This document shows, one piece after another, positions 2,197 through 24,109 of a stretch of 64,000 nucleotides of DNA; positions within the stretch are counted from its first letter, which is position 1, and each line of letters starts with the position of its first letter. A program made the translations under genes and the position numbers. The stretch lies in assembly GCA_029961685.1 (NCBI GenBank), contig JARWKL010000010.1, positions 7,771,931 to 7,835,930 of the forward strand. Reading direction: 5' to 3'. The notes under the pieces were generated by a model that was not told the origin of the DNA, searched no databases, and saw only the letters and a list, made by a program, of their open reading frames with translations. This stretch comes from Aristolochia californica (Eukaryota > Streptophyta > Magnoliopsida > Piperales > Aristolochiaceae).

Positions 2197-2305
2197 CTTG
2201 GTTGACTTACATTTATGTATGTTGGTGGACAGTGAACTGAAAGTTCTTTCTCTGAAGTGCATGAGGTGTTATGACAAGTGCTATTCTTGGTTTTGATTCA
2301 TGTAC

Positions 2306-2603: not shown

Positions 2604-2608
2604 TGTAC

Positions 2609-3140: not shown

Positions 3141-3253
3141 ACGAATGTTGCACTAGATGTTCTAAAGACAGATGACGTGTCAGCTGCCATATTTGCTCCT
3201 GGATGGGTCTATGAAACCAAACAACTGCCTGACTTCCAAACTGCACAAAATCG
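3141..3253 (+). CDS. ENGase: ENGase exon preceding the giant intron
   Basis: A 113-nt exon beginning TNVALDVLK and ending DFQTAQNR, with the last codon split as CG|A. The acceptor is …CCAG before 3141 and the donor is GTATTTAT at 3254. The remaining A of the split Arg codon is supplied at 20598, 17.3 kb away, where the frame resumes with WWGLVEESW. Confidence 0.88.
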
Positions 3254-6200
3254 GTATTTATTCTCTTCTATTGCTTCAAAATTGGACAATTTTTATTTTG
3301 CATTTGTTATAACATGTCATGTAAACGTTTTGAGTAACTTATTTGTTTTTGTTCATGAACGTGTTGAATTGCATTATATGCTGTTGCATCTATGAAGTGC
3401 AATGATGTTGAATTCAGTTCTTCCGGAGCTTGGCCCAACAAAGTTCAAGTTGGGTTTTGTAAAATTGTAAAATTGGGAAGAATAGAAGAGGGAAAGGAAG
3501 AATAGCGAGGAGAATAGTTGAGGAAGCAGCTTTGGGTAAGAGCTCAGAAAGAACAAACTCCCCCTTTTAATAATTCACTTCTCTTAAGTTAGTTTTTACA
3601 TAAAAGGACAATTATGCCCCTTAGTAGAAAAAAGGACCAATATGAGATGATGAAATGACCAAAATGCCCCTGAACTAGTATTTGAATATTCCCCTTCAAG
3701 CAGAAGAGTAAATGTAAACAGTCCCAGCTTGTCATAAAATATCAGATGTTTATGCCTTCCAAGAAGTTTTCTAAATACATCTCCAAGTTGTTCAAAAGAC
3801 TCACATACGAGGTAAACCACCTTCCCTTGCATGATAATATCTCTTATGAAATGACAGTTGATCTTGGTGTGCCGCTGATTACACGACTATATACCATGAA
3901 GCATTGGGCCACAGCTGAACCCACTACATTGTGGTTGGGTAGAGATTTACTTACAATTGATTAGAAGACATTTTTTAATTTTATTATTTATATTTTGGAT
4001 TGTTTTTGGGAATTAATTATTTCATTTGATGAGGGGCATTTTTGTCATTTAAATTATCAAGATATACCTCTTCCTTTAAGTCACCATATAGGAATGCATT
4101 TTTAACATCCAGTTGAAATAGTGGTCATCCTTTGTTAGCTACCACAGAAACCAAAATCCAAACCAAAGTGAGTATAGCAACTAGTGAAAATGCTTCAAAA
4201 ACATCAATGTCGAATGTCTTGGTCACTAATCTGGCCTTATACCGATCAATGATCCCATAAGCTTTGTACTTAATCGTGTACAACCAACGGTATCCCTCAA
4301 CAATTGCTCTTGAAGGTAGATCATGGAGACTCCACATGCCCCTAGACACAAAAGGCATCCATCTCCTTTATAGCTTGTTGCCACTCATGTGAAGTCATAA
4401 CATCCTGCATTGGACGAGGTATAGTGGACTTAGATAATGACACAACAAAGAATTTGTAGGATGGAGGCAAGAAATCAAGAGAAACATATTGTGATATGGG
4501 ATGGACATACATGACCTTTTACCTTTTTGAAGACTAATGCGTACATCCAAATGAGAAGGAATTGGACCTGTAGGCAAAGAGGAAGACGGTTGGTCCTCAT
4601 TAGTGGGCTTATCAGTTGGAACATCAGTAGGCACCGGAGCAATCAACAAAGAACAAGAATGTCGAAAGTACACTTGTAGTGGCGGCAAGGGACTTGCGGC
4701 AGGTGCATCTGTAACAGTAATGGGCACTTGGTTATCTATTGGAGTACCAGATGATGATTGAGACTCAGTAGAAGATGCAAATTGAGGTGGCCTTTTTCTT
4801 CTTTGAAACTCCTCTGCAGTTGAAGTCTTAGATCACGTGACTGGCTCCTTCTCTATTGGAATTAAGTTGCGTGACAGATGCACTGGATTCACTTGGGGGC
4901 TTTGCCGGAATTTATGGCCCTACCTGATACAGGGATCGTCGCTCTTTTTGGGATTAGCTTTCTGGCCTTCTGCCTCTCTAGCAAGACGTTTACTTGGTCC
5001 AATGGTCAGAGACCTCCCATCCTGTCCAAGCTTGATCGGTTCCTTGCCATTGGTGATTGGCTCAACTCCACGACAACACATGCGGATCGGTTTTGAGTTG
5101 TGCTGGCTCTGACCACTAGCTTGTTCAGATTGATACCAAACTTGATAAATGGGGGCCTACCCTTTTCAAGTCTGATAATTCTTTGCTATTGGATAAGCAC
5201 TTCACCGGCAATGTCGCCTCATGGTGGGAAACCTTTGGAGACCCTAACTATGATGGCTGGTCTCTCCCACACAAGTTAAAGCGTCTCAAAGTGAAACTCA
5301 AATCATGGTCCTCGGAGTGTCGCCTTACTGCCTCCTCTCAGAAATCCTCTCTTCAGTCTCAGATTGCTGCCCTTGATATGGTTGAGGAACAAAGATGTCT
5401 TACTCATGTTGAGTTTTCTACCCGCATCTCTCTTCAATACAATTTTCAATCTATTCTACACTCTGAAAGGGTTCAGTGGAAGCAAAAGGCCCGCTTCAAG
5501 TGGTTGGCCGAGGGTGATACTAACACAAAGTTCTTCCATGTCATCACCTCGACCCGCAGGAGGACTAACCGGGTCACCTCCTTGTCTATTGACAACAAGG
5601 TTACCTTGGATAGGACCTCCATTACTGACGCTTTTCTCATTTTCTTTGAAGATCTTTACAGGGAGGAGCACCACCGCCGGCCCAATCTTTCTAGCCTTTG
5701 CTTCTCCGCGATTTCCCCAATACTGGCGAATTTCATTGAGCTTCCTTTCTTTGACTTGGAGGTTGAAGATGCGGTCCTAGGACTCCCTCGGGATAAGGCC
5801 CCGGGGCTTGACGGATTCAACGGGGAATTCTACAAGGCTTGTTGGCTCGCTTTGACATCGGATATCATTTCCATGGTCAGAAGTTTCTATGATCGTGGAA
5901 TCACTTTTAAGAGCGTGGGTGCTTCTCTTATTGCTCTGGTCCCCAAGAAAGCTAGTGTGGAATGCCCTCAAGACTACCAGCCAATCAGTCTCGTTTCAAG
6001 TCCATACAAGATCATTGCTCGCGTCTTGGCTCGTTGTCTCAAGGTTGTTCTTCCTACCATCATCCATCAGGGCCAGAGCGCTTTTATCAGAGGTTGTGAT
6101 ATACTCGACTTAGCTATGGCCACACATGAAATTGTGGATCATTTTGCCTAAATGGGTCGACCGTGGTTTGTTCTCAAGTTGGACCTCGAGAAAGCTTTCG

Positions 6201-9200
6201 ACCAAGTTAGTTGGTCCTTCTTGGACGACATTATGTAGCATATGGGGTTTGGAGACAAATGGAGGTTTTGGATCCGCGGTAGTATCTCTTCGGCCTCTTA
6301 ATCCTTGCTTCTCAATGGCACGGTTTATGGCTTCTTCCAGGGCACTCGATGCATCTGTTAGGTAGACCCCCTCTCCCTGCTCCTCTTCAACATCATTGCT
6401 GAGTACTTATCCTTTATGTTCTATTATGCTCGCAGCATTGGTTGGTTAGAGGTCGTCTCTGATCATAGTTGCTTTGAAATCCCCCTGCTTCAGTTTGCGG
6501 ATGACACCATATGTTTTGGCGTCGGCACACTTGATCAGGTCCGTAACATTATTGCCCTTCTCGGCCTTTTTGAGATCACTTCTGGTTAGAATGTAAACAA
6601 GGGAAAGTCGACCATCATGGGATATCACAATGATCCCCCCCTTGCTTCAGATTATGGCAGAGACTTTGGGATGTCCGGTTGCGATTGCTCCCATGAACTA
6701 TTTGGGCCTCCTCTTACTGACAGTAGACCCCGGATGGGACTATGAGCTCCAGTATTCGAGCGGCTTGAGCGACGCATCTCCACTTGGAAGGGTAAGATGC
6801 TCTCCAAGGCGGGTAGATTGCTCCTCTTAAACTTATGCCTCGCAATTATTCCTAACTACTTCTTCTCTTTCCTGGCTTGCCCCACCTCTATTAGCCGAAG
6901 CATTGACATGATCAAGAGATGTTTTCTGTGGTGTGTCACTGGAAATGAATTTCACTATCACCTTGTCAGTTGCGAGGAAGTGAATAGGCCAAAGTCTTTG
7001 GGTGGGCTCGGGATCAGACGCACCAAAGAAATAGGGCACATGCTCTATTTCTCAAGTGATTTTGGAAGCTCAACTCTTCCTCGAGGGCTTTGTAGAAGCC
7101 AATGGTTGCCTTCAAGCTTCGGCATCTTGGAGATATATGGATCACAGACGGCAATTGTCATCATCTCTCCTCCATTTGGAAGGCCTTGTTTCATATATTC
7201 TCCACTTTTTCGCACTTCCATTCGGTTTTTTATTAGGGATGGCTCCAGTCTGCATTTCTGGACAGATTGGTGGTCGGGCGATGGCTCTCTTGCCTTGTCT
7301 TACCCACCACCGCTTCAGCTCACCACCAGCCGCGACTTATTTGTCTCTGATGCTTGGCGGAATGGCTCATGGAATCTTTGCCTTAGATGTTGCCTTACTG
7401 ATGAGAAAACAATTTTTGTTTGTGGCCTGATTAATAGTCTTGGTAGTGTGATGGTGCGCCCTCAGACGGCTGATTTGGTTCCCTGATGACAGCGGGCGAA
7501 TCTTCGGTCTCCTCGGCCTACCGTCATCTTATGGGTTGGACCCGGCCACTCGCCCCCCATCCGGCTACTTTTGTTTGGCGCCTCTAGGCTCTGCCCAAGG
7601 TGAAATTTTTTCTTAAAAGTGCCTGCCGTAATATGATTCTAACTACAGACAACCTTATTAGGCGTGGCAATACCACTCCCGATCCTCTCTACCCCTTTTG
7701 TGGGACGACGGCTGAAATTGTGAGTCACCTTCTCCTCCATTGTGGCTTCGCTTGGAAGGTCTGGACTTTCATGATTGACAGCATGGGGCTCAGCTTCTAC
7801 ATCCCACTTGACCTGAGCATCATGTGTCGTTTCTCTTCTAGGACCCTCCTTCCCAGCCTGGGCAAGCTTCTGCTGGCTGCCTGCATTGCTTTTGTCCCTT
7901 AGTGCCTTTGGAAGGAAAGGAACTCCTGACGGTTTGACTGTGCTTTCCGCTCTACTGTTGAGGTTTCCTACACTGCCACAGGGGTCATCTCTACCTGGAT
8001 CAGCACCCGAAAAGAATTTGGCTACCTCTCTTGTGCCCCATTCTGCACCAACTGGAAGCTTAGTGCTCAGATGTTTGTCCCCTCTGCCCCCCGCCGAGTT
8101 GTTGTTTGGGAGCCTCTTCCCATCGGATATTATAAGCTAAACTTTGATGGTAGCACCTTTGGGAACCCGGGTTTGGCTGGTTTTGGTGGGGTGATTTTTT
8201 ATCCGGACGGCACTGCCATACTCTCTTACTCTGGCCCTCTTGGAATTACTAACTCGACCACTGCTGAGCTCTCTGGTCTCCTTCACGGTTTGCGTATTTT
8301 TCAAGACCGCTTCAATGGTCCCCTTATTGTGGAGGGAGACTCCAAGGTTGTCATCGGATGGTGGTCCACCTCATCCTTCCCCCCATGGCGTCACTGGCAG
8401 ATTTTTCTTGATATTTTGGACATTGTATCCACCATTTCTTGCACTTGGTCTCATGTACTTAGATCAGCCAATTATGTTGCTGATTTGTATGCTAAATTAG
8501 GCTCCCCCTTCAATCTCTTGTTGTTAGGGGAGGTCTCCTTTGATGTTTATTCTCTTTCTTTGAAATATAATTATCAATATTTCAAAAAAAAAAATGAAGA
8601 AGCAAAGAAAGGAGTATTTTTAAAAAAATAACATCAGAAGACGCATACATCTTTCGTTACTATCATAACACTTATACAACTTCTGATGACATAAATATCC
8701 CAAACAACACACTTACTGAGCGAAGAGACAATTTATCTGCAGAGTTACTAAATAAACGAATAAAACATGTTGACCCGAAGATCCGAGGAACAACATCAAA
8801 CAATTTACACTGAGGTTTTAAAATCAACATAGGAACTTATCCTTGCAAAACAGAAGATGACATACAATTGATCAAGAAGCACGATGATAACACTGCATCC
8901 CCAAAAAGATTTAGGGACGTTCATGTGAAACAGGAAAGTACGAATAACTTTAAGATGTATGTTTTCGTTCTTTTGTTGTGGAGAATAGATGTAGGAAGTC
9001 TGATGAGTAATACCATGTAAAACACAAAATGATGTAAAGATTGAGAAACTCAAGTCCATTGTCAGTACGAAAAATGTGAACACAGGCGGCAAACTGATTC
9101 TGTATTTCATTGAAAGAGGTAACAAATACATCAAAGGCCTTGGATTTATCTCACAAGATATACACCCACATGACTTTACTGAAATCATCTATTAAGGAAA

Positions 9201-12200
9201 CAAAGTAATTAAGGCCAAATAGACTAGGGACTCTACTTGGACTCCATTCATCTAAATGTATTAGTTCAAAAACTTGAGAGCTATGACTAAAACTAACGGA
9301 AAATAGTCCAACAGTGCTTTCCAGTTGACACGACTTACAATCAAAGAAAATATCAACTAGCAAAGATGGAAAACACTAATGGAGTTTAGCTGGTGATAGA
9401 TGTCCCAAACACAAGTGTCAAAGAAATGAGTCTTTAGTTGTAAGCAGAAAAGACTGATGGAGTTTAGCTCGTGATAGATGTCTTAAATGCAAGTTCAAAG
9501 AAATGGAGTCTTTAGTTGTAAGTGCCACAATCTTCGGAATAGATACATCATCCAACAAATAGAGTTCGTCCTTCTCATGTCCGAAACCAACCGTCCTCTT
9601 GGTCTGCGAGTACTAATGACACAAGTAGTGGGAGAAAAGGTTACAAAATAGTTTAAATATTTAGTTATATGACTCAAAAATAACAAATTGACAAGAAAAT
9701 TTGGAACAAAGAGAACTGAAATCAACGATATCTGAAGTGTAGTAAGTACAATGCCCTCCCCCTGAAATGGGGGAATAGACCCATTAGCTAAATTAACATG
9801 ACAATAGGTTTGAGAAGGGTTAATAGAAAGAAGGCATACCTGACATGTAGGTGGATGCTCCTAAATTGATGATCCAAGAGGGAGAATGAGACGCATTTAG
9901 TGTTGGCATACTTGTACTCGCCATCATGCCACTTGCTAAGGGAGAGGAATCCGGCTCAATGGGAATAGGTGTGGCAGATGTGATAATTAATTGAGCAAGC
10001 CTCTGGAGTAACCACTGAACCTCCTCCTAAGGACCAGAATAAGAAGTCTTTTTGCTGCCTGTCCATAGTTCATGCTGGCTTACCAAACTTCTCCAAACAT
10101 TTATCGGAGAAGTGGTCTGTTTGGCCATAGTGAATAATACACTTCCTATTAACTCTATCACTATGCCATGACCTTGAGCAGAGGAATCTTTGCCACAACC
10201 TCTATTGCTACTCCTATGGCCTCGGGCTTCAGACTTCCTAATTGATGAATTGAGGTTGAGAGCAGTTGCATCAGGAGGTTTCTTATCCTTTTCACTTTTA
10301 CTTGCTATTGCCCCTTCTGCCGGAATGACTCGGTTAAGGCTTGTTCCTGTGTAGTCACATTTGTTAATACTTTGCTCATATAGCATTATGTTCTAATCCA
10401 AGACCTTCTAAAAATCTCACCACTTTAATATGATGTTTTTCCTTGCAGGGATGGAAGGTGCTAATTTCTTGTAAGACACCCCTCATTTCTGTGAAATAAT
10501 CATTGACTGATTTGTCACTCTTCTGCATATTAAAGTATCAGACATACAATTTGAAAAATAGGTGATTTGGGGATAAAATAGAAGAGAAAATGGATTTCTG
10601 GAAGAGAGGCGGCTTTAGAATCCGAGCCAGAAAGGTCCTTTATAATCTGGGTTTAAGTGAAATTTTACAATAGGACAAAAATACCCATCAATACTCAAAA
10701 TTACATCTTCTAAAGTACATGTCTAAATTGAATGAAAATTTAACTAGAGATAAAATAAGACATTCTCTAACTAATAGCCATACTATAAGAGAAAAATGTA
10801 ATATTGAAAATCTAAGAAATGAGCTAAATACCCCTAAACTTGTATTTTAACATTCCCCCTCAAGTTGGAGAGTAGATATCAAACAATCCCAGCTTGTCAT
10901 TAAAGGATACATGTTCACGTCTCCCCAAAGGCTTGGTAAATATATCTCCCAACTGGTCTGAAGACTTTACATAAGGAGTTACCACATTCCCCTGCGTAAC
11001 TACATCTCTAATGAAGTGGCAATCAACCTCTATATGTTTCGTTCTCTCATGGAATACAGGGTTGCTGGCAATAAAAATGGTTGCCTGGTTATCACAATTC
11101 ATAACTGTTGGAAGATAGGCCCAAGGCCACACGACCAAGGAAGGCCCACAAGCTGACATCCTTATCACATAAGTTGGAAGATCAAGAAGGACTCATAAAG
11201 GCATCTTTATCTTATGGTCACGTCCTAGAAGAGTTCAAGTTTGAGTTATGTTTGTCTTTTATCTATATTGAGTTATTTAATTATGCTAGGACTTATCTTT
11301 AAGTGTTAGAGTTTGGGTGTAATTGGGACAAAGGTAGTTTTATTGTAATTGGGACTCTACTACCTTCCTTTATTATAAATAGAGGTTCATGTACTTTGAT
11401 TATATTAAGTTAATGAAGTCAATGAAGTATTTCTCTTTTCCATAAATTCAATATGGTATCAGAGCAGGTTCTGTGAGTTGACTTGGTCAACCACAGAGAT
11501 AATGAGATCCTTTTCTCTAAACCCTAAACTCTAAGTCTAGGTTCGTAGTTGTTTTTTTCAGTCCCTACACCCGTAGTTTTCTTTGCATTTTTTACTTCTA
11601 TAATGAGATTTTCATATTGCAAATTATATATTGACGGAAAGATATTTGAGTCTACTTTCCAAGGAAAAACGATTTTTTCCAATCAGAGTTATCTACAAAG
11701 AGAAATCGATATTTGAATGAGCAAAGGTCAGATTGCAAAAGAGGTTCGAGCAGTAGCAGAAAATTTCACCTTCCGAGGTATTTTATGCTATCAAGAACGA
11801 GATTTTATATGGAGATATATATATAAAAAAATATGTGTAAGTCTATTCTCTTACATATTCAATCAATTTTCAATCGGATTTATCTACAAAGAGAAATCTA
11901 TATTTGAAGCAGTCAGATTGAAAAAAAGGTTCGAGCAGCAACAGAAAACTTCAACTTCCAAGGTATTTTATGCCATTAAGAACGAGACTTTATATGGAGA
12001 AATATGTATCAAAAGAAATATTTGTAAGTCTATTTTCTTACCTATTCAACCAATTCTCGATCTGAGTTTTTTATAAGGAGATATTAATCTTGGAAGAGTC
12101 AATGGTCATGTTGGAAAAAAAGGGAGAAACAATGCTTAGTTTGGCCAAATGACAGAGACCGAAATCTATCAGATTATTTATCTTCTGATAATTATATTTT

Positions 12201-15200
12201 ATGAAGAGAAGTTATACTTGGATGAAAGGTATTTAAGTCTAGTTTCGGAAGGAGAAAATTTCATATCAATCTGATCTATATTTAAAGATATATTCGCATT
12301 CGAAGAATCAAAGGTCATGTTTGTTGGAGTTTATGGTTTGGGTTAAGTGTTGTGCTTTCCGCACCTAATAGACTGGTCTTTTAGGTTGTATTGGCTAGGC
12401 GTCTGACTCAGAACTCCAAAGTTAAGCGCGCTTAGGCAAGAGTAGTACTAGGATGGGTGACCTCCTAGGAAGTCTTATTGGCTAGGCGTTTGACATGGTA
12501 TCAAAGTTGGCGCCCACATTCCGCGTTCGAATCCCGGAGTGCAGCGGTCAGAACCCGGGAACAGTGGGTGTTAGAGTTTGTGGTCTGGGTTAAGTGTTGT
12601 GCTTTCCGCACCTAACAGATCGGTCTTTTGGGTTGTATTGGCTAGGCGTCTGACTCAGAACTCCAAAGATAAGCGTGCTTGGGCAAGAGTAGTACTAGGA
12701 TGGGTGACCTCCTGGGAAGTCTTATTGGTTAGGCATTTGACAATGCTGGTATTCTGTTGTATTGAAAAATCCGAATTTATGCCCTTTGTTTTGCATCACT
12801 GTTTGAGTTGCTATATTAGGAAAATATCTCACTTCTCCTTTGTTTAAGGGCTTAATACTACATCTATGTTATTTGGGCTTATTGCTACATCTATGATATT
12901 TGGTTTAAGTTGGGATCACTGCCATTACCACCCAGTTTGAGGGGGAGAAGTAGAAGAAGTACAAGAAAGAGGTATTTTATTCTATATGTTGTGGATAAGT
13001 TTATGTGACCAAAATATTCAAGAAAGGGGGAGCACAAAAGAAGAAGTTTATGCATCTAAGAAAAAATATTTATATCGGATTATGATTATTTCATGAGTCC
13101 TACAAAGTTTATTATTTTGGTTCGTGTTATATGTGTTGGAAGATGGTCGTGTTACATTACAATTGCTGCTATTATATCTCTTTGGATGAGACATTATTAT
13201 TCAAGAAGAGGTGGCCTCAATACCTTTTCTCATACCGTAATTTATTTGACTCTCAAAAATATCACAATTACGACACCATGAGAGTCGGTGCCTGGATTGG
13301 GACACCATGATAAATTTAACTCTCAAAAATATCACGGTTGCGACACCATGAGTGTCGGTGCCCGGATTGGGACACCATGATAAATTTAACTCTCAAAAAT
13401 ATCACGGTTAGGATACCATGAGAGTCTGTGTCTGGATTGGGACACCATTATAAATAAACCCACTAACCCTTCTGTAATGGCTTTTATTACTCCTACCACT
13501 TGAGAGTCGTTGTCCTGTGGAGGGACACGGTAGTGGACACTTTAGAGCAATGTCGATAGACACAGTACCTACAAAAGACGGAGTGTGCCCTACATCCAGC
13601 ATTAGGATTGGAGTATGGAGCAATGTTTGACCGGCTAGGAGTGATTTTTACTCACTTATATTATGCCAGCAGGGCCTCATGGAAAGACGCAATAGTGTGA
13701 GGGGGAGTGTTGGATGATGAAGGCATATTGGAAGATGTGTCATTTTATACAAAAAGATTCTATACATCATTTGCAGTAAGCTGGGAGTTCATGTTGTTCT
13801 CTCAACCCCAGCTTGAGGGGGAGTGTTGGAAGATAGGCTATAGCCCACACGACCAAGGAAGGCCTACATATCTAAGAATATTATAAGATGGGTCACACGA
13901 CCAAGGAAAGCCCACAATATGGGCCCAAACACATAAGAAGTAGGACCCACCATGATTATCACAAGCTGGCATTCTTATCACATAAGTTGGAAGATCAAGA
14001 AGGACTCACGAAGGCATCTTTATCTTATGGTCACGTCCGAGAAGAGTTCTAGTTTGAGTTATGTTTGTCTTTTATCTATATTGAAGTATTTAATTATGCT
14101 AGAACTTATCTTTAAGTGTTAGAGTTTGGGTGTAATTGGGACAAAAGTAGTTTTATTGTAATTGGACTCTACTACCTTCCTCTATTATAAATAGAGGTTC
14201 AATTACTTTGATTATATTAAGTTAATGAAGTCAATGAAGTATTTCTCTTTTCCATAAATCCAACAATAACCATAGGGTCATGTAACATAAAACCAAACTC
14301 AAGAAACACAAACTTAATCTACATAAGCTCACTAACTGTATGAGCCATTGCTCGATAGTCGGCCTCTGCATTGGACCTAGCCACAACCGTCTGTTTCTTA
14401 CTTTTCCAACTTATCAGGTTGCCTCCAACAAAACAACAGTAGCCTGATGTAGAATGTCTATCCATCTTACACCCAACATAATCGGCATCAGAATACCCAA
14501 GTACATCAATTTTCCCATTATGAGTATACAGAAGACCTTTTCCAGGTGCACCCTTCAAGTACTTTAAAATCCTCTGAGCAACTTCTAAATGAACTTTTTG
14601 AGGATTTTCCATGAACTGGCTCACAACTCCCACAGCAAATGAAATATCCGGCCTGGTAACTATAGCATAGATTAGTTTACCTACTAACCGTCAGTATTGA
14701 GTTTTATCCTTGAGTGTAGGACCCTGGGTGTCATGTAGATTATGATTAACTTCCATGGGGGTGTCTATAGGTTTAGCACCTAATAAACCATACTCCTGTA
14801 ACATAATCCAATATATATTTTCTCTAAGAAAGAACAATACCTCGCTTGCTATGAGCGACTTCAATGCCAAGGAAGTACTTGAGAGAACCCAAATTCTTTG
14901 TCTGAAAATGTATTGCCAGATATTGTTTTAACTTCTGTAACACCATCAAGATCATCACTAGATAACACAATGTCATCTACATAGACAACCAAAACCACCA
15001 TACCAGTCTTCCTATAGAACCCAAATTTGTAGTACCACATCACTAAACTTTTCAAACCAGGCCCGTGGACTCTGTTTAAGTCCATAGATAACCTTCTGTA
15101 GCTTACACACCTTTTCTGTCTCCCCCTGAGCAAGATACCCAGGAAGTTGCTCCATATACACTTCCTCATAGATCACCATATAAAAAGGCATTCTTCTCAT

Positions 15201-18200
15201 CGAGTTGAAAGAGAAGCCAACCCTTATTAACAGCCACATATATTAAGATACGTACCGAAGTAAGTCGGGCCATAGGAGAGAATGTCTCAAAGACATCAAC
15301 TCCAAAAGTTTGTGTATACTCTTTCACTACCAGTCGAGCTTTGTACCGTTAGAGCCATCAACATTATATTTGATAGTATAAACCCAACGACACCCCCACA
15401 ATAGTTGCTCTTGCAGGTGGATCACATAGATTCCATGTTCCCCGAGACACCAAAGCACTCATCTCATCATCCATAGCTTGTTTCCATTCTGGAGAGAACA
15501 AGGCTTCCTGCACTGAACAAGGTATATGGGAAGTAGACAATAACGTAGCAAAGGACTTGAAGGATGTAGACAAAAAATCAAGTGACACATATTTGGATAT
15601 CGGATGAGAAGTACAAGACTATTTACCTTTTCATAGACTAATAGGCAGGTCCAAATCAGAGACAACAGGATCTGCAGGCAATGAGGAAGCTGGTGGGTCA
15701 TGAGAAGAAAGCTCTGTAGAGGTAACTGTTGGAGACATTGTAGTAGTACGAGAGTGACATTTGTAAACATAAAGAGGCAATGAAGAACTCGATGACGCTG
15801 GTACATCCAAAACTGCAATAAGAACAGGACAATCTGAAGGAGATTCAAGTGATACAGGAAACTCAATAGATGATGAAAAATATAGAGTATGTTAAAAAAA
15901 GGTCACATCGGCTGACACATATGTTTTCCATCAAACAGGATCATAACATTTGTACCCTTTTTGTTCATGAGAATATCCCAAAAAAACACATTTGACAGAT
16001 TGAGGTGACAACTTATCGACCGAAGTTCCAAACATATGAACAAAACAGGTACATCCAAAAATACAAGGAACCACACCAAACAATTTATAATTGGGTTTTA
16101 AAATCTGAAGTGGAACTTGACCACTCAAAACAGTTGAGGGCATACGATTAACCAAGTAGCACGAAGTTAAAACTGCATCTCCCCAAAAAGATTTAGGAAC
16201 ATTCATAAGCAATAATAGTGTCCTTGTAACCTCAAGGAGATGTCTATTTTTACGTTAAACCACCCCATTTTGTTGTGGTGTATAAGGGCAGGATGTTTGA
16301 TGGGTAATACCATGAGAATCACAAAATACTGAAAATTTATGGTTAAGATATTCCAAAACCATTGTCAGTACGAAGTACATGAACACATGCACCAATTTAA
16401 TTTTTTATTTCATTGAAAAAATTGAGGAATACATCAAATACTTCAGACTTCTCCCGTAGGAGATACGCCCAAGTGACTCTACTGAAATGATCAATGAATG
16501 ACATAAAATACTTAAAACCAAATGGGCTAGGAACCCGACATGGACCCCATACATCAGAGTAGACTAATTCAAACAACTTGGTGCTTTGACTAGAACTAAC
16601 TGGGAAACTGGAGTGATGATGCTTTCCCAATTAACAGGATTCACAATCAAATGAAATATCGGTTGGCAGAGAAGGAAAAGACTAACGCAACTTAGCTAGT
16701 GAGGGATGTCCCAAGTGCAGATGCCACAAGTAAAAAGAATCTGTAGTAGTGAGAGCTACAACTCGAGAAACGGATACATCATCCAGCATGTCGAACCCTC
16801 CTTTCTCATGTCCTGAACCAATCGTCCTCTTTGTCTACAAGTCTTGGAAAACACAAGAAGTAGGATAAAAGGTTACTGAACAGTTTAAGGATTTAGTTAT
16901 ATGACTCACAGATAAAAGATTAACTGAAAACTTTGGTACAAATAAAACAGAATCTAAGGATATTTGTGGAGTAGTGCGAACTATACCCTCCCCCTGAATG
17001 GGAGAGGTGGATCCATTAGCTAAAGTAACTCAACGATACAAATGAGACGACTGAAATAGAGAGGGCATACCTAACATGTGTGTAGAGCTTCTGAATCAAT
17101 GATCCAAGAGGGGGAATGAGACACATTTAGTATATTCATACCTGTACTAGCCATCGTGGCACTTGCTGAGGAAGGAGGAGTCTCGGTAGCCTTGGAAGCA
17201 GTAGATGCAGCAGTCAGTTGACCCAGCTGCTATAATAAATGCTGAATTTCCTCATACGATCCAGTGTATGAGGAGGTGTCCTTATCTGTGACTATAGAAT
17301 TGGCCCAGGTAGGTTTACCAAATTTGTCCCAACATTTCTCAGAATTATGATTACTCCTACCACAATGAACACATTTTTTATCCCCCCAATAATTTCGGCC
17401 ACGACCACGAGTTGTGTGAGAGCGACCTCTATCTCTGTTATTACCACCATGAAACTGACTGTCGGGCTTACCAATAGAAGATTGAAGGTTAAGAGCAACT
17501 GCTTCTGAGAGAGTTCCACCTGACTCATTCTTATTTACTACTGCACCTTCAACTTGAAGAACTCTGTTAAAAGTTTGCTCAAGAGTGGTCACATCCTCAT
17601 TAACCAACAATTGGGCTCTAATAACATCATACTCATGCCCCAAACCATCCATAAACCAGGCTACTTGGATCTAATTTTCTTTCTTACGGATGTCTTCAAC
17701 ATTCGTAGTAAAAAGATGAAATGTACTAATCTCCTGTAGTACTCCCCTCATCTCAGTGAAATAATTTGTCACTAATCTACCTCCACGCTTCATATTAAGA
17801 ACTTCACATATAACTCTTAGATCCTTGATAAATTACTTTCTTGAGACAAAATGGAATCCAATGTAGTCCACATTGCCTTAGCAGTATTGCAACTCAAAAT
17901 TTGATCACTAAATCGGGATTCCATACTATTGACCGACCAGGTCATTACTAAATTATCTTCAGCCACCCAATCTTCAGTAACAGTTACCGGGGGATCATCA
18001 TTTATATATTTTGCCATTCTTCTGGCCCTCAAATACATAAAAAATGATCTAGACCAGTTTACATAATTTGATCAATTCAACCAGATCGTAGTTATCTGAA
18101 CAGATTGGGAAAATTTCACATCTGAGCTATCAGCAGTCCTTTTGACAGCTACCCGTGTGCTGTATCACCAAACACCACAATTCATTACACTAGAGCGTCA

Positions 18201-21200
18201 ATTAACCAAAGGGAAGTATTTTCCCCAAATTTCAATATTTGCATTGTCATGTGGGCCCCACACCGAATTCAATTAGGGTAATGCGGCACTCAATTCATTC
18301 AATTTAGAACCAGTAGTGATCGATTCCAGCAATTGAGACCATAAATCAATGAAAGAATTATCTAATTGCAAGAAATCAAGATGGCGTAGGCTATATGGAT
18401 GATGACGTAAACATTAGGTTGACGACACAGGCAGATTTGAGAAATTTCCTCAAATTGGGATCATTAAACACTTCTAAATCCCAACATTCAGTCAAATAGA
18501 AGCAGTAATCACTAGCCAATAGGCTAAAATAGCCAAAAAAAGGAAAAAAAAAGGAAAATTTTACCCTACCAATCTAGAAATGTGGGGAAAACCTTCAAGG
18601 AGATTACTAAAAATGGAGAGAAGATCCACAAAATCCAAAGAAACTTGCCCAAGACTTGCGTTACTGCTTTGATACCACGAAAAATAGGTGATTTGGAGAG
18701 AAAATAGAAGAGAAAATGGATTTTTGGAAGAGAGACAGTTTTTCTGCCTTGGAATCCGAGCCAGAAAGGCATTCCTGCTTCTTTATAATCAGGGTTTAAG
18801 TGAAATTTTACAATAGGACAAAAATGCCCCTCAATACTCAAAATTACATATCTCCTAAAATACATGTCTAAATTGAATAAAAAATTAACTAGAGATAAAA
18901 TAAGACATTCTCTATCTAATAGCCATACTATAAGAGAAAAATGTAATATTGAACATCTAAGAAATGACCAAAATACCCCTGAACTTGTATTTTAACACAA
19001 TTCATATATCCTTGACAAATTCCTCTCTTGGGACAAAATTGAGACCAGTGTATTCCACATCTCCTTTGCTTCCTACAATTCAATATCTAATAACTAAAAC
19101 AGGATTCCATGCTATTGACCAACTAAGTCATCACTTGATTATTTTCTGCCTCCCAATCTTCAGTTATGGGATTAGGAGAATCATTCCTAACATATTTGGT
19201 CTTTCTTTTATGGAAGTAATCTGAATAGAGTGAGAATTTTTATTCTCTTAGCTCTCTTAGGGCTTAATTACAACAATATGCTTACCAGATTCAGCCATTC
19301 GATACCTCAAGATGCACTTCTGTATATCCAAGGCAATTCTGTAAACTCAAAACAATAAACACAGATTCTCCAAATGCCTGTCAAGTGGGGCCCACACTCC
19401 AAAACTAGGGCACAACCCACTTCACAATAACAAACTGCAATTTGCAGAAACCAAAGTAGCAATGAAACCTCATACACATCAGCCTAAAACATCAATTATA
19501 AGGCCGAGGTAGACAAGATGAGTAAGGCACAAAAATGATGATGCAGGCATCAATGGTGTAGGAATTCCAATTTAGAACCCTTTATAGGCAGTCAAGCATG
19601 ATGATGCTCAATAGTAGTAGAGACCATCAGCCAAATTGGTTATGGCAGGAGAAAAAAACTCAGTTTTACCATACCAATAAAGAAACTAGTGGAGCCCTTT
19701 CCGTAGGGATTAGAAACTATGAAGAAAATCCAAGAAACTTGTAGAAGAACCTCCCAAAAGCGGCTTTTATTGCTTTGATACCATGTAAAATTGGGAAGAA
19801 TTGAAGAGGAAAAAGTAGAAAACTAGAGAGGAGAAGAGTTGAGGAAGCAGCATTGAAGGGCTGCGTTGGGTTACAGCTCAAAAAGATCGAGTTCCCCCTT
19901 TTAATAGGACAATTATGCCCCTTAGTACAAAAATGGTTATAATTCTATGAATACAGATCAGAACTAAGTGTAACTTGAAACATAAAGTCATGACAAGTAT
20001 TCTAACTTGCAATAATCAGATGGGATCCATATGAGATGATGAAATGACCAAAATGGCCCTGAACTACTATTTTAACAAGTTTGTTTAGAACCAGAAAGGA
20101 TATTCTATGCTTATAAAAAACGCTGGATTGCTGAGAGAAACATCATCTCACTATTATGCTTTGTGCATTTTATGGGTATCACAGTTTCCATCATGACCAG
20201 GTATTTCATGAAGAACTAGATTCCAACTACGAGATGGTTGTGGTAGCATATTGTTTTTCAAAATGGCCATTACTGTATTAGTGATGTAATATCTTTTTCC
20301 ATTGATTTATTCTTTAAAGCCTCTTTTTATTTTTATTTTATTTTAATATTTTGTCAAAGGTTTCCTATATGTTCTTCTACTTTTGGATGTTCAAACTAAA
20401 TGCTCTTTAAATGCTGTAAGCATTGCTTTGTGAAAATTACCTATGGGCCAGCATAGGACCTTGTTGCTTTTTCATAAATGCTCTTAGTAATGGGATACAT
20501 AGTCTTTTGAAGGCTGTAACTGTTGCTTTTCATTATGTTTTAGTCATTAAAAAGAAAATTTTATGTAGACCTGATGATCCACTTCTTACTTTTATAGATG
20601 GTGGGGCCTTGTTGAGGAATCGTGGGGAATATTACAAAAATATCCTAAAGGGCTGCCATTTTACTCTACTTTCGATCAGGTTTAAACTTGTATACTTGCT
20701 CTTTTTTATTGCTATTCTGAATAACTGCTGTAGATTGTATATTTTGTCAGCTCTCACATTAATTACTAGTAATTATGGATCTGTATTTTCATTACTGTAG
20801 TTTCTTTATCATCATTCTAGGCTTTTGTGGCCTTGCACCCTCAATACATCTAACAAGGAATCTGAGAATGTGATCCTTTGAGTTTCTTCAGGGACACGGT
20901 CTGCATATTTATTCTGAAGGCTTGCAGCTTTCTTCTAATGCATGGAATAACATTTCTTCTCAAACCTTCCAGGTATGATTTATGGACAACTGGTGCCTCT
21001 CTATCCATTAAACTTTTAGTCTGGCCATTTTTATCTTTATAAGAGATCTATGATCAGAATTTCATTGAATTTGTGAGAAGAAACTGTAGTAGCATTATAT
21101 AATTTTCTTGAGTCAACGGACTTATTCCATTTTTTTCTTGATGTTCTTCTTTGATGCTTTTTTCTTTAATTTATTTGCCTCTTTTAATTAAAATTTCATC

Positions 21201-24109
21201 TTTTTTTTTTGTTAAAGTTAGGCCTTGGTCCATCCTAAAATAACTAATAAAGTTAGAAAATCTTTCCCAAGTAATAAACATAAGATCTGTCTGAACATAA
21301 GGTGATCACTCTCATGCCATGTTAAAGTTGGTCCTGGTCCATCCCAAAATGATTAGCCAAATTTCGAAGGATTTTCCTGAGTAATAAGACAGGATCTTCG
21401 TATTCTTAGATTCATGTGTTATTCTTAACATTCTTTCCTTTGTGTTTTTTATTGTTCATTTCTTCCATTGCTTTTTTTGTACAGACATCTCGCTAGTGAC
21501 CCAAAAAACCTGGTTTTTAAGTTTTTAGTTCATGTTGTTGGTTTATTCTCTGTTATTTTTGCGTTCTACCCTGTTTAGGTGTCACTATGTACTGAAATAG
21601 ATAAGAAATTAAGTATTCTTAAATGTATTCTATTATCTTGTAGAGTTAGTTATACATGTTACAAAATTCCATGTAATCTGTGACAGCCAATACTGGATGG
21701 TTCTTCTGACCCTGCTAAAAGCACAATTCAGGCCTCTATCAAGTGAGTTCTTCACATGAATGTGATTCTTGTTACCTTGCAAATGAAATTTTTGCCGTCT
21801 TGAGTTCGTTTTCTTGAATTTAGCATTTTATTTTGAATTTCTCTTCTTTATTTTTATTTCATGATTTGTTCCATACGTTGGACATGATTGGAGGATAGAG
21901 GAAATTTTTTCCTATAATGATTACCAACTAGATATCTGATTCATTTATGATTGAAGAATCCCAGTGCAGCTTATTGGTGAATTTCTCAGTTGTTGATCGT
22001 GTCTTTCTTGAAAGAATAGTTTAAAATAAAGAGATAGGATCAACACTTATGACATGTGATTATTGAACGAATTCACTACTTACACATTAGTGGGAATAGG
22101 GGTGAGCATGGGGTCGGGTTTTACAGGGAACCCGACCTGACTCGACCCAAAAAACCCAGGTTAGGGTTTCTAATTTAACCTCGCGGGTCGGAGATGGGGC
22201 GGGGAAAAAAAACCCACCGGGTTTCGGGTCGGGGACGGGTTTTCCCAAATCCGACCTGAACCCGACCCACATATGAGATAGAGATGTAAAACATGGTTGT
22301 GACATATTGGGTTTATGGGGATGGAGCGGGGACGGGTCAGGTTTAAATCGGGTTAACGGGAACAGGCGGAAACGAGGTTACGAGGATGGTGATCGGATCG
22401 GGGTCGGGTTTGACGATACAGGTTTTTTGGGGTTTGGGTTTGGGTTTGGGTCTTGATTAATCCATCCCCGACCCGATCCATGCCCACCCCTAAGTGGGAA
22501 GTGGACTGTTCCACCGATATATTTGAATATGTATTTTTTTAGCATTGCCAGCTTTGCAAGTGAAGGCAATTTCAAGCATGATATAATGGGAAATTTCAAA
22601 GACCCTTTAAGCTTAAATTTTAAATATAGTTATTTTTTTCATAATAACTAAAATGATTTCTAAATTTCCCTAATAGTTCCTTATCCACTCATTTGAACCA
22701 GAAGGTCATACATAAATCATGCAGACTATCCTGCATTCAGTTGGTCAATATATTATTGTCATTATACTATTTATCTGAAACTAAAATAAGTTTTCCAGTG
22801 TTTTAGATTTATGTCATGAGATAAGGATTCTTACTTATTGTTGTTAGTTTCAAGGAGGCAACTTATCTTGGAGGTGCATGCATGACATTTGAAGGTAGCC
22901 TTGGAGTTGATTCCTCTGTCACAATAAGACTCTTTGATGGAGAAATTCCTTTGCATGACCAGCCCATTCATATCTCATATTCTGTAAGCTCACCTTTTTA
23001 TGTACAATACATGCGTTTATATAGAGTACCTTCAATCAAGTGCAACTTAAAGTAATTTAATATGTCTTGCTGAATAACCAAGAGAAGGTGTGGTAATATC
23101 AATTCTACATTGATGAGACACGGGTGAAATGGAAGATTTCAGTGCAAATTTGAGGGACTGTGTCTCTGAACATGCCATGTTCATGTCCATTTGTTGCCTC
23201 AAGGCTCTACCAAAAAATGTTTGATAGGGTCATGTATCAATAAGTTTTCTGCTTGTTACTCGTAATGATTGTTCATTTAATTTCATCAAATAGTTCTTCC
23301 ATGAAACGCAATGCTGTTTTGCAATCAATTAGGTGAAGTTGGACGGAAGCTCTCAGCTGGGCCTGTCTCTTGGGTTCTCCAAATTGAGTGAAAGAAGTTC
23401 AGTACTTCTTGCACCAAGAAGAAGAACCCTACGACCTGCAAATCGCATCAGTGGTCAATTTGCTGAAGTAGTTTCACCAGTGACAATTATGAGCAGTACA
23501 ACTAGAGAGAGAGATCAAGCAGAATGGAGCATACATGAAATGAGCATCAGCATGAAGGATTACACATTAACAGATATAAATGCCGTCTGCTACAGAGAAA
23601 GCAGTCCTGTTCTTAACCACCCGCCATCGAACCCAGATATTAAAGCTGATTCTGGAAGCACTACTCTAAGTTCAGCTGCATCGGAATACAACGCATCTCT
23701 TGGTCACATAAGTATCGGAGCATCAGGGCAGAACATAGTTTTCCCACCAGCTAGTTCATGGGATATTGGTGGTCAGAATATTACATGGGGATCGACTTCT
23801 CAAGGAGCCAAAACTGTGAGTCTCAAAATCAATTGGAAGCTGGAAGGAGGTATTGATACTTCATTATTTTCAAAGTACAATATTTATATCGGAACATCCG
23901 GCAAACAAGTAAGCAGTGCAGGCACAGATCAGGTGGGAAGAGGTGAAGAATATCTTGGGGTGGCAAGAGTGGAAGCTTTCTATGTGTCTGATCATGTAGT
24001 TCCTGAGGGTGATTCAAATGTATTATTCATCATTCAAGTATGTGGTGTTGATGGGGTTTGTCAGAAACTGGATGAGTCTCCAACATTTCAGTTGAATGTT
24101 TCTGGTTAG
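3141..24109 (+). CDS. ENGase: Cytosolic endo-beta-N-acetylglucosaminidase (GH85), C-terminal six exons
   Basis: This gene encodes the enzyme that cleaves the chitobiose core of free N-glycans in the plant cytosol. Exons assembled from splice sites and phase are 3141-3253, 20598-20679, 20892-20972, 21687-21742, 22848-22983 and 23333-24109, with the stop at 24107-24109. They give 414 residues in one unbroken frame, and every intron is GT-AG. Family landmarks are the conserved FAPGWVYET segment in the first visible exon, [10 protein letters not shown] at the next, then a glycan-site loop ([13 protein letters not shown]), [10 protein letters not shown], and a beta-rich C-terminal domain. The N-terminal half of the GH85 barrel, with its catalytic Asn-X-Glu, lies upstream of the window. 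The intron 3254-20597 is 17,344 bp of nested retrotransposons, yet exon phase is kept across it, so the gene is probably still functional. GH85 assignment is firm; expression across the intron is an inference. Confidence 0.9.
3458..3688 (-). repeat. 3' LTR of Copia A
   Basis: Starts TGTAAAATTG on the plus strand and ends …TTTGAATA next to a polypurine tract (element strand CTTGAAGGGGAA, 3689-3700). It matches 19784-20077 along its length but lacks about 100 bp present in the right copy (around 19930-20030). Confidence 0.8.
3596..3832 (-). pseudogene. Copia A pol C-terminus (RNase H end)
   Basis: The minus-strand reading contains [26 protein letters not shown], the hallmark tail of Copia polyproteins (Q-x-A-D-x-F-T-K-x-L, then a short KLGL). 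It lies just inside the 3' LTR, as expected. Sequence at about 3900-4070 does not match Copia and replaces the deleted RT/RNase H section. Confidence 0.8.
4125..4727 (-). pseudogene. Copia A pol fragment: linker and start of reverse transcriptase
   Basis: The minus-strand reading at 4358-4125 includes [20 protein letters not shown] and [18 protein letters not shown]. This is the conserved opening of Copia reverse transcriptase (W-hy-T-K-K-x-D-G, RYKARLVAKG, FSPVAK). The 4727-4395 reading is the proline/serine-rich linker between integrase and RT. The catalytic YVDD region is missing. Confidence 0.8.
4782..8595 (+). mobile_element. 5'-truncated L1-type LINE inserted in Copia A
   Basis: A non-LTR retrotransposon on the plus strand, about 3.8 kb, opposite in orientation to its host Copia A. 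It starts inside the endonuclease region (FTWSNGQ…SKLDRFL), continues through reverse transcriptase and ends after an RNase H domain with a short A-tract (8584-8594). Candidate target duplications are GAAGATGCAAA (4771-4781) and GAAGAAGCAAA (8596-8606), 10 of 11 identical. Copia A homology resumes on both sides, as alignment to Copia B around 15860-15920 shows. Multiple stops and frameshifts make it inactive. Confidence 0.85.
5183..6151 (+). pseudogene. LINE ORF2: linker and N-terminal reverse transcriptase
   Basis: An open frame of 322 codons with the L1-clade features [45 protein letters not shown] and GQSAFIRG. An in-frame TAA ends it at 6149-6151. The next RT block ([16 protein letters not shown]) continues just downstream in another frame, and an FADD catalytic box ([11 protein letters not shown]) is readable near 6490-6522. 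Known family function: target-primed reverse transcription. Confidence 0.85.
8071..8631 (+). pseudogene. LINE ORF2 C-terminal RNase H domain
   Basis: The reading contains [44 protein letters not shown] and [16 protein letters not shown]. These are the D-E-D and terminal D motifs of the plant type I RNase H found at the 3' end of plant L1 LINEs. The 124-codon frame at 7600-7902, with a C-x2-C/H-x-C zinc-like segment ([20 protein letters not shown]), is the preceding RT-tail region. Confidence 0.85.
8805..10386 (-). pseudogene. Copia A gag and integrase remnants
   Basis: Minus-strand pieces, 5' to 3' on the element: gag 10386-10027, protease/gag-pre-integrase 9725-9495, integrase 9363-9151 and 9188-8805. 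The last contains [18 protein letters not shown] and [15 protein letters not shown], the core and C-terminal integrase signatures of Copia elements. Frameshifts separate the blocks. Gag continues across the Copia B insertion at 18998-19220. Confidence 0.78.
10552..10852 (-). repeat. 3' LTR of Copia B
   Basis: 301 bp, TGAAAAATAGG…TATTTTAACA on the plus strand. It aligns over its whole length to 18678-18997 but lacks two short segments near its middle. Confidence 0.9.
10860..11105 (-). pseudogene. Copia B RNase H C-terminus (beyond element C)
   Basis: The minus-strand reading [22 protein letters not shown], then VDCHFIRD, then [23 protein letters not shown] is the end of Copia RNase H. Element C interrupts it just before the conserved CDNQ. 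Joining across the ATAAC duplication restores the family pattern M-x-M-x-CDNQAT. Confidence 0.88.
11106..11453 (+). repeat. 5' LTR of element C
   Basis: 348 bp, starting TGTTGGAAGATAGG and ending TTCAATA. Relative to the 3' LTR it lacks about 95 bp (the part corresponding to about 13870-13965). Confidence 0.88.
12408..12474 (+). other. 5S rRNA-derived segment in Cassandra 5' LTR
   Basis: This matches the middle and 3' part of plant 5S rRNA from CAGAACTCC through GGGTGACCTCCT to the AAGTC near the 3' end, with a few changes (GCGCGCTTAGG for the usual GCGTGCTTGGG). The A-box, intermediate element and C-box region of the RNA polymerase III promoter is included. It is not a genuine 5S gene, because the first third of 5S is absent. 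Confidence 0.88.
12655..12721 (+). other. 5S rRNA-derived segment in Cassandra 3' LTR
   Basis: Second copy of the 5S-derived segment. It is closer to canonical 5S than the first (GCGTGCTTGGGCAAGAG, GGGTGACCTCCTGGGAAG), with one obvious change where AAGATAAGC replaces AAGTTAAGC. Confidence 0.88.
13243..13451 (+). repeat. Three 70-bp tandem repeats in element C
   Basis: Unit with ACTCTCAAAAATATCAC, then GACACCATGAG.GTCGGTG, then GATTGGGACACCAT, repeated with starts of ATATCAC at about 13259, 13329 and 13399. Each unit also contains a short inverted match (GACACCATGAGAGTC). It sits in the 3' part of the internal region, where the related element D has a different tandem repeat. Confidence 0.85.
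13824..14265 (+). repeat. 3' LTR of element C
   Basis: 442 bp, starting TGTTGGAAGATAGG and ending TCCAACA. It corresponds over its full length to the 441-bp LTR of element D at 51786-52226 (reverse strand). Confidence 0.9.
14319..18038 (-). pseudogene. Copia B gag-pol (broken)
   Basis: Minus-strand readings in element order. Gag is at 18038-17230, with the zinc knuckle [14 protein letters not shown] in 17652-17230. Integrase is at 16630-16397 ([22 protein letters not shown]) and 16212-15931 ([24 protein letters not shown]). The linker and RT start follow at 15866-15364. RT at 15239-14861 carries the catalytic YVDD (VVYVDDIVL), and RNase H at 14633-14319 carries [21 protein letters not shown]. 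Frames change several times and stops occur, so no full polyprotein can be made. The RNase H tail is separated by element C and resumes at 11105. Confidence 0.88.
18678..18997 (-). repeat. 5' LTR of Copia B
   Basis: 320 bp, CGAAAAATAGG…TATTTTAACA. The expected first T is now C. On the element strand it is followed by the tRNA-Met-type primer-binding site. Confidence 0.9.
18998..19783 (-). pseudogene. Copia A gag N-terminus and leader
   Basis: Sequence directly after the Copia B duplication aligns with Copia B gag (about 17811-18030): the same order of ATATCCTTGA…, GGATTCCATGCTATTGACC and TCTTCAGT. This shows that B landed inside A's gag. It is followed on the plus strand by untranslated leader up to the primer-binding site of the 5' LTR. 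No intact frame remains. Confidence 0.75.
19784..20077 (-). repeat. 5' LTR of Copia A
   Basis: Starts TGTAAAATTGGG and ends TTTTAACA on the plus strand. It is immediately followed, on the element strand, by the tRNA-Met-type primer-binding site TGGTATCAAAGC. It pairs with the shorter LTR at 3458-3688. Confidence 0.82.
22097..22492. mobile_element. hAT-type MITE in an ENGase intron
   Basis: A 396-bp element with terminal inverted repeats TAGGGGTG(A/G)GCATGG and a perfect 8-bp duplication, AGTGGGAA, at 22089-22096 and 22493-22500. The 8-bp duplication and TAGGGGTG tips fit non-autonomous hAT transposons. The interior is rich in CGGGTCGGG/GACCCGAC on both strands and has no coding content. It lies in the intron 21743-22847, well away from splice sites. 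Confidence 0.9.
23333..24109 (+). CDS. ENGase: ENGase last exon (C-terminal domain)
   Basis: A 777-nt terminal exon after the acceptor …CAATTAG, in phase with the TCT that ends exon 22848-22983. It starts [11 protein letters not shown] and includes [21 protein letters not shown]. It ends in a beta-sandwich-like stretch ([39 protein letters not shown]). This resembles the accessory domains that follow the barrel in plant GH85 enzymes. No frameshift or stop is present. Confidence 0.88.
   Translation: MKLDGSSQLGLSLGFSKLSERSSVLLAPRRRTLRPANRISGQFAEVVSPVTIMSSTTRERDQAEWSIHEMSISMKDYTLTDINAVCYRESSPVLNHPPSNPDIKADSGSTTLSSAASEYNASLGHISIGASGQNIVFPPASSWDIGGQNITWGSTSQGAKTVSLKINWKLEGGIDTSLFSKYNIYIGTSGKQVSSAGTDQVGRGEEYLGVARVEAFYVSDHVVPEGDSNVLFIIQVCGVDGVCQKLDESPTFQLNVSG

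What the first reader, a model, noticed from the sequence alone, without database searches (positions are those of the whole stretch)
3254..20597. A 17.3-kb ENGase intron holding a four-level transposon nest
Seen directly: the split Arg codon CG|A joins 3253 to 20598 and restores the GH85 frame, while the intron contains Copia A > Copia B > element C > Cassandra, plus a LINE in Copia A. Target-site duplications (GGTTT/AGTTT, CAATT, ATAAC, ATGTT/ATGCT) fix the order of four events. The exons remain intact, so the host may still splice across this repeat mass, possibly with DNA methylation-dependent intron processing as known for other repeat-rich plant introns.
Basis: partly seen in the sequence, partly recalled or inferred. 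Interest (0 to 1): 0.75.

Follow-up and report, generated by a model that had tools for sequence, protein, structure and literature searches.

The report
Transposon nest inside a plant ENGase intron
A plant gene for a sugar-trimming enzyme carries a 17.3-kb intron that is almost wholly a stack of jumping genes inserted one into another, while its coding parts look intact; it appears to be a clear example of a kind of intron already known from related plants.

Summary
Intron 3254-20597 (GT-AG, split Arg codon CG|A) contains Copia A, Copia B inside A, an LTR element C without recognised genes inside B, a Cassandra inside C, and an L1-type LINE inside A. All five insertions carry target-site duplications; three are also backed by joined-flank comparisons, two by DNA and one by reading frame. 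Without the nest the intron is 719 bp.

The host genome is held (659.6 Mb; closest listed protein from Aristolochia fimbriata). The gene has 11 exons over 33.5 kb and an open 727-codon frame, 81% identical to A. fimbriata. GH85 matches were found only here; another place holds broken 3' remnants. Neutral decay since Copia A arrived would leave no stop with P about 0.002, so the gene was very probably spliced across the nest. No transcript was seen. Methylation-dependent processing is untested; CpG depletion does not single out the nest.

Long, LTR-filled introns are reported as prevalent in magnoliids and Chloranthales (PMC8626473). I judge this a well-preserved but ordinary member of a known kind. 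In passing: the 10.3-kb intron before it holds caulimovirid-like remains.

The parts
3141..3253 (+). ENGase exon 6 (phase 0 in, ends CG of the split Arg codon)
   Evidence: PF03644 positions 217-301 hit by the joined exons
3254..20597 (+). ENGase intron 6, 17,344 bp, GT-AG
3254..3457 (+). original 5' part of the intron (199 bp plus TSD GGTTT 3453-3457)
3458..20077 (-). Copia A, antisense to the gene; 3' LTR about 3458-3691, 5' LTR 19784-20077; interrupted by the LINE and by Copia B
   Evidence: LTR pair and TSD; internal homology to B; Pol_BBD 18.2 bits, below its cut-off of 27
4782..8595 (+). L1-type LINE inside A, apparently 5'-truncated, sense to the gene, poly-A tail 8584-8594, TSD GAAGATGCAAA 4771-4781 / GAAGAAGCAAA 8596-8606
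   Evidence: RVT_1 20.3 bits (below cut-off 29.6) and RVT_3 59 bits; TSD
10552..18997 (-). Copia B inside A, antisense; LTRs 10552-10852 and 18678-18997; TSD CAATT
   Evidence: SH3_retrovirus and RVT_2 pieces in integrase-before-RT order
11106..14265 (+). element C inside the RNase H-like region of B (region named from a recalled motif): LTR retrotransposon with no recognised gene, LTRs 11106-11453 and 13824-14265, Met-type primer site from 11454, TSD ATAAC
   Evidence: longest ATG frame 119 aa (11717-12076) without a Pfam match
12322..12742 (+). Cassandra inside C: LTRs 12322-12495 and 12569-12742, 5S-like stretches 12378-12489 and 12625-12736, TSD ATGTT/ATGCT
   Evidence: Rfam 5S_rRNA 34.9 and 32.7 bits, E 1.2e-4 and 4.5e-4, both below the gathering score of 38 (not listed at gathering); empty site
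20083..20597 (+). original 3' part of the intron (515 bp)
20598..20679 (+). ENGase exon 7
20892..20972 (+). ENGase exon 8
21687..21742 (+). ENGase exon 9
22848..22983 (+). ENGase exon 10
23333..24109 (+). ENGase exon 11 with stop codon; C-terminal Ig-like domain PF25529
51785..53349 (-). second, deleted copy of element C that lacks the Cassandra; serves as the empty site

Best explanation
A working plant ENGase (GH85) gene, the only one found in its genome, of an Aristolochia-like species had a 719-bp intron 6. Copia A inserted there in antisense. A truncated LINE and Copia B then inserted into A, element C into B, and a Cassandra into C. The intron grew to 17.3 kb without touching its splice sites, so the spliceosome still joins exon 6 to exon 7 and selection keeps the exons intact. 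The growth is bystander expansion of the kind already known from magnoliids, Chloranthales and grapevine. Shown here: the anatomy, the order of the LTR insertions, the open frame, no second GH85 locus found. Inferred: that splicing occurs and that the expansion is neutral.
For: GT-AG sites at 10 of 10 introns and a 727-codon open frame, 81% identical to A. fimbriata over 728 aligned columns. GH85 matches only at this locus, 4 rows, 5 of 5 candidates scored; one other place, C438, has exon-10/11 remnants with stops and an interruption of about 8 kb. The window product keeps 88 of 89 gap-free columns that are invariant in the 10 homologues aligned, and it has fewer unique changes than A. fimbriata against 9 of 9 outgroups (chi2 over 3.84 in 5 of 9). 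If the frame had been neutral since A inserted, 6.1-6.6 stops are expected and P(no stop) is 0.0014-0.0022; since B, 0.030-0.039. Transversion-only LTR differences follow the nest: A 12/157, B 10/298, C 8/349, Cassandra 1/174. In C2:7754500-7835930 the one N run lies about 6 kb upstream of the ATG, outside the gene.
Against: No RNA evidence was available. Total LTR divergence does not follow the nest at the last step (Cassandra 7.5% against C 5.4%, standard errors 2.0 and 1.2), although 12 of the 13 Cassandra differences are transitions. P(no stop) since C is 0.059-0.073, so intactness says little about the last steps. Codon-position differences against the C438 remnant are flat (36, 34, 36 at positions 1, 2, 3), so that comparison does not itself show constraint. 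The stop-codon calculation takes LTR divergence as the neutral rate. Of 58 single-intron gaps sampled from two other families, 0 reached 10 kb, so this intron is large even for its genome.
Confidence: 0.85

Rival explanations
1. Not exclusive of the main reading: the nest is heterochromatic, and full-length ENGase mRNA depends on the IBM2/EDM2-type machinery that prevents premature polyadenylation in TE-bearing introns; loss of silencing or stress would switch the gene to truncated transcripts.
For: Premature polyadenylation in heterochromatic introns on loss of IBM2 is documented for rice and Arabidopsis (PMC7145194, abstract and passages), and intragenic TE state affects poly(A) use in Arabidopsis (PMC10241880, abstract). 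Three of the five elements (LINE, C, Cassandra) lie in sense. 7 of the 12 Cassandra LTR transitions are in CG or CHG context.
Against: No methylation or RNA data. CpG depletion in the nest is no stronger than in the exons or the intron's own flanks, though A and B are lower than introns 7-10. Sense-strand AATAAA is not enriched: 10 on + against 19 on - over the intron, 0 against 2 in the LINE, 1 against 7 in C (no shuffled control).
Confidence: 0.25
2. The gene is dying: recent truncation of transcripts by the nest with exons not yet decayed.
For: No transcript seen; intron 5 is also large, 10.3 kb with viral-like and LINE debris. P(no stop) since C inserted is 0.059-0.073, so a recent loss is not excluded.
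Against: The frame is open long after Copia A arrived (P about 0.002 under neutrality), exons 6-11 show fewer unique changes than the A. fimbriata homologue, and a broken copy in the same genome shows stops and an interruption.
Confidence: 0.1
3. Assembly artefact: repeats collapsed or mis-joined between exons 6 and 7.
For: Repeat-rich region of a draft assembly.
Against: Each level has its own TSD, and three levels have coherent joined-flank support. No N run in the window or gene. If the source is A. californica (inferred), it was built from HiFi reads (PMC11334207, passages).
Confidence: 0.03

Closest known systems
Long LTR-filled introns of Chloranthales and magnoliids (Chloranthus spicatus genome, PMC8626473)
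   Same: Long introns with LTR elements as the main contributor; genes above 20 kb common (876 of 2,184 orthologues in C. spicatus); coding length similar; genes with long introns expressed, up to a point (passages).
   Different: The passages I saw give genome averages and one example; here one intron is resolved to five insertions.
Expanded introns of grapevine (PMC3058033)
   Same: 2,697 large introns, over 80% repetitive, Copia about 6.5 times Gypsy (passages).
   Different: About 30% of LTR pairs there exceed 99% identity; here LTR pairs differ by 5-12%.
Heterochromatic introns under IBM2/EDM2-type control (PMC7145194, PMC10241880)
   Same: TE-bearing, longer introns inside genes presumed active.
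   Different: Methylation state and dependence on that machinery unknown here; this is intron 6 of 10, whereas rice shows a promoter-proximal bias.
Nested plant LTR retrotransposons (PMC6911290)
   Same: Younger elements inside older ones, mostly 5-bp TSDs (passages).
   Different: That survey counted only the first level of nesting; here there are four levels, inside a gene.
Cassandra TRIM elements (PMC10853983, PMC7215508, PMC4717578; passages)
   Same: No recognised coding region, 5S-like sequence in both LTRs, Met primer site.
   Different: 421 bp with 174-bp LTRs, against a smallest of 563 bp (Saruma henryi) in the PMC10853983 survey.

Membership tests
GH85 plant ENGase | Glyco_hydro_85 domain and ENGASE1 C-terminal Ig-like domain | tested here: met
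   PF03644 41 bits (cut-off 22.2) and PF25529 101.8 bits (27) on exons 6-11; upstream exons 69.9, 55.3 and 43.8 bits
GH85 plant ENGase | catalytic Asn-x-Glu motif (recalled) | tested here: met
   LNIEVNLD in exon 3, against L-N-x-E in P0001 and I-N-x-E in the other eight homologues that cover this stretch; activity not tested
Ty1/Copia LTR retrotransposon (A, B) | LTR pair, Met-type primer site, 5-bp TSD | tested here: met
   primer-site motif recalled; TSD of A 4 of 5
Ty1/Copia LTR retrotransposon (A, B) | integrase region before reverse transcriptase | tested here: met
   B only: SH3_retrovirus 15931-16254 (60 bits) lies before RVT_2 14861-15172 (18.8 bits, below cut-off 31.6) on the minus strand; integrase core itself not hit; A by homology to B
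Cassandra TRIM | 5S rRNA-like sequence in both LTRs | tested here: met
   34.9 and 32.7 bits, below gathering score 38, whole model matched
Cassandra TRIM | no coding region, Met primer site, LTR identity at least 74% | tested here: met
   421 bp; no ATG frame of 60 aa or more inside it; the one long stop-to-stop frame overlapping it has no Pfam match; LTRs 161 of 174 identical; primer-site motif recalled
Cassandra TRIM | length range 563-968 bp and 5S stretch about mid-LTR, as surveyed | tested here: not met
   421 bp; 5S-like match at LTR positions 57-168 of 174. These are survey values, not a defining rule, and another 421-bp copy exists
L1-type LINE | reverse transcriptase, RNase H-like domain, poly-A tail, TSD | tested here: met
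   RVT_3 59 bits, RVT_1 20.3 bits (below 29.6); tail and 10-of-11 TSD
IBM2/EDM2-dependent heterochromatic intron | long TE-bearing intron in an active gene | tested here: inconclusive
   long and TE-bearing; activity not shown
IBM2/EDM2-dependent heterochromatic intron | CHG methylation / H3K9me2 over the intron and loss of the 3' transcript without the machinery | not testable with these tools
   CpG and CHG observed/expected uninformative

The most novel reading that the evidence does not exclude
A single-copy ENGase gene has come to depend on silencing of about 27 kb of transposon-rich sequence and caulimovirid-like debris in two neighbouring introns, so that loss of silencing switches it from full-length enzyme to a transcript truncated within or after the catalytic-domain exons, making ENGase level a read-out of intron heterochromatin.
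Probability: 0.1. Interest if true: 0.45.

Novelty: new member of a known kind. Interest (0 to 1): 0.2.

Why it matters
It is a clean worked case in which the insertion order, the original 719-bp intron and continued integrity of the exons can all be read from one locus. That makes it useful as a test gene for splicing across nested repeats in a non-model magnoliid. It does not change what is known about such introns.

Tried and rejected
Dating by total LTR divergence: the last three insertions cannot be separated (B 6.7%, C 5.4%, Cassandra 7.5%); only transversions follow the nest. My first LTR alignment of A was inflated by forcing unalignable sequence together (16.7%); two clean blocks give 12.1%. 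Methylation footprint by CpG: no clear contrast. Poly-A signal count: no sense enrichment. Codon-position test against the C438 remnant: flat, uninformative. DNA-level empty site for C: only the left flank found a relative (53 bases at 77%), so the frame across the junction was used instead; Pfam gave no match to the RNase H-like pieces on either side, so that name rests on a recalled motif. No empty site was sought for Copia A; for the LINE, A was aligned with B on both sides, which placed it only roughly. Rfam on the Cassandra-like pair at 2306-2583: no 5S match up to E = 5; three weak matches to other families, all below gathering. Intron-size context: I pasted 89 of 89 myosin rows and 50 of 55 adaptin rows (five long uninterrupted matches left out; two more genes with a single row dropped by the script). 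'Single-intron gap' means a profile jump of 5 or less, which favours well-detected exons.
Full report
What was claimed and what is there. The joined exons 3141-3253, 20598-20679, 20892-20972, 21687-21742, 22848-22983 and 23333-24109 keep phase through five GT-AG introns and end in a stop codon. They match Glyco_hydro_85 (positions 217-301) and the ENGASE1 C-terminal Ig-like domain. The protein search found 303 proteins and listed 120; the best is from Aristolochia fimbriata (74% over exons 6-11), the other 119 are at 57% or below.

The gene outside the window. G000 (659,574,684 bases, 521 contigs; window = C2:7771931-7835930) has GH85 matches at this locus only: four rows. Exons 1-5 lie at C2:7762510-7764808. 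The full model is 11 exons over 33,530 bp, a 2,184-base CDS including the stop, and 727 aa, 81% identical to the A. fimbriata protein. Introns are 680, 491, 100, 89, 10,262, 17,344, 212, 714, 1,105 and 349 bp. A search with the A. fimbriata protein gives 13 matches, 10 at this locus and 3 at C438:3985597-3994756. The C438 remnant covers exon-10 and exon-11 parts with in-frame stops and an interruption of about 8 kb. The assembly size is close to the published A. californica haplotype 1 (661.6 Mb, 531 scaffolds; PMC11334207, passages), so that species is likely, but this is inference.

The nest. Copia A (3458-20077, minus) has LTRs and TSD GGTTT/AGTTT. Inside it lie a LINE, apparently 5'-truncated (4782-8595, plus, TSD 10 of 11), and Copia B (10552-18997, minus, TSD CAATT). 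Element C (11106-14265, plus, TSD ATAAC) splits the RNase H-like region of B; it has no recognised gene, its longest ATG frame being 119 aa without a Pfam match. A 421-bp Cassandra (12322-12742, plus, TSD ATGTT/ATGCT) sits in C; its 5S-like stretches score below Rfam's gathering score. By arithmetic the intron without A and one TSD is 719 bp, in the range of its neighbours.

Is the order real? The joined flanks of the Cassandra match the uninterrupted second copy of C in this window (87% over 170 columns). The joined flanks of B match B's own homologous region (73% over 251 columns). The joined flanks of C give one frame across the junction, with a stop just before it; at DNA level only the left flank found a relative. 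On clean LTR blocks the differences are A 19/157, B 20/298, C 19/349 and Cassandra 13/174; transversions alone are 12, 10, 8 and 1. Total divergence sets A apart (12.1%, standard error 2.6) but does not separate B, C and Cassandra. K2P of A is 0.132. At the 1.51e-9 rate used for magnoliid relatives in PMC8626473 (passage) that is about 44 million years; at 1.3e-8 (recalled) about 5 million.

Does the gene still work? The exon 6-11 product keeps 88 of 89 gap-free columns invariant among the ten homologues aligned. It has fewer unique changes than A. fimbriata against all nine outgroups tried, which are not independent of each other; 5 of 9 exceed chi2 3.84. Without selection since A inserted, 6.1-6.6 stops are expected in the CDS, P(none) 0.0014-0.0022; since B, P 0.030-0.039; since C, 0.059-0.073. 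These numbers take LTR divergence as the neutral rate. Codon-position differences against the C438 remnant are flat (36/210, 34/209, 36/208) and show nothing either way. No transcript data were available.

Is it unusual? In the same genome, 13 myosin genes give 36 single-intron gaps (median 97 bp, largest 9,976); one of the 13 has a 22.8-kb gap between matches that spans about 200 profile positions and so probably several introns. Eleven adaptin-family genes give 22 single-intron gaps (median 713, largest 8,639); four of the 11 have a gap above 10 kb that may hold several introns. So 17.3 kb exceeds all 58 single gaps sampled, but multi-kilobase gaps between exons are not rare. [quoted passage not shown] spicatus. 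Grapevine has 2,697 large introns, over 80% repetitive and Copia-rich. Over 10% of rice genes carry intronic heterochromatin (PMC7145194 abstract).

Mechanism. The best-supported account is neutral growth of a splice-tolerant intron. Methylation-dependent processing is possible by analogy with rice and Arabidopsis but has no support here: CpG observed/expected is 0.32 in A, 0.38 in B, 0.49 in C, 0.54 in the LINE, 0.67 in the Cassandra, 0.28 in the intron flanks, 0.32 in the exons, 0.56 in introns 7-10 and 0.54 over the window.

Verdict. Observation confirmed, interpretation partly supported, a new member of a known kind. My paper searches did not ask for this locus by name and I saw no paper describing it.

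Noticed in passing
L006 (G000:C2:7764000-7773999), minus strand, about 1311-6430; intron 5 of the same gene: Probable remains of an endogenous caulimovirid (Peptidase_A3 65.6 bits; nearby RT piece 26.4 bits, below cut-off, and RNase H piece 77.8 bits) with an L1-type LINE (L006 about 1959-4529) lying between the RT and RNase H pieces. Described from separate open frames only.
   Followed up: partly
window 2306-2583: Two direct copies (78 bp, 91%) related in reverse to the Cassandra LTRs: a decayed Cassandra-like element in intron 5 without a detectable 5S match.
   Followed up: partly
window 12322-12742; L015; L021-L023: Compact Cassandras: a 421-bp form at two of the 12 places looked at (window and C46); three others (L021-L023) are extended by about 24 bases at the left end, read as about 450 bp. 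Both forms are shorter than the 563-bp minimum in the PMC10853983 survey. The genome search gave 2,299 candidates, 40 scored.
   Followed up: partly
G000:C438:3985597-3994756 (L011): ENGase pseudogene remnant (parts of exons 10-11) with stops and an interruption of about 8 kb.
   Followed up: yes
window 35799-37304, minus strand: Uninterrupted 501-codon open frame matching the whole DUF247 profile (390 bits).
   Followed up: no
window 47864-48663 and 54835-55191, plus strand: Further Copia-type fragments: Pol_BBD and gag_pre-integrs hits in the first, gag_pre-integrs in the second. Two neighbouring frames (46954-47556, 48909-49232) had no Pfam match.
   Followed up: partly
window 62111-62698, plus strand: Transposase frame with DDE_Tnp_4 (48 bits) and Plant_tran (36 bits) hits, PIF/Harbinger-like by recall.
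   Followed up: no
window 24531-24605, plus strand: tRNA-Ile(UAU) gene about 420 bp downstream of the ENGase stop codon.
   Followed up: no
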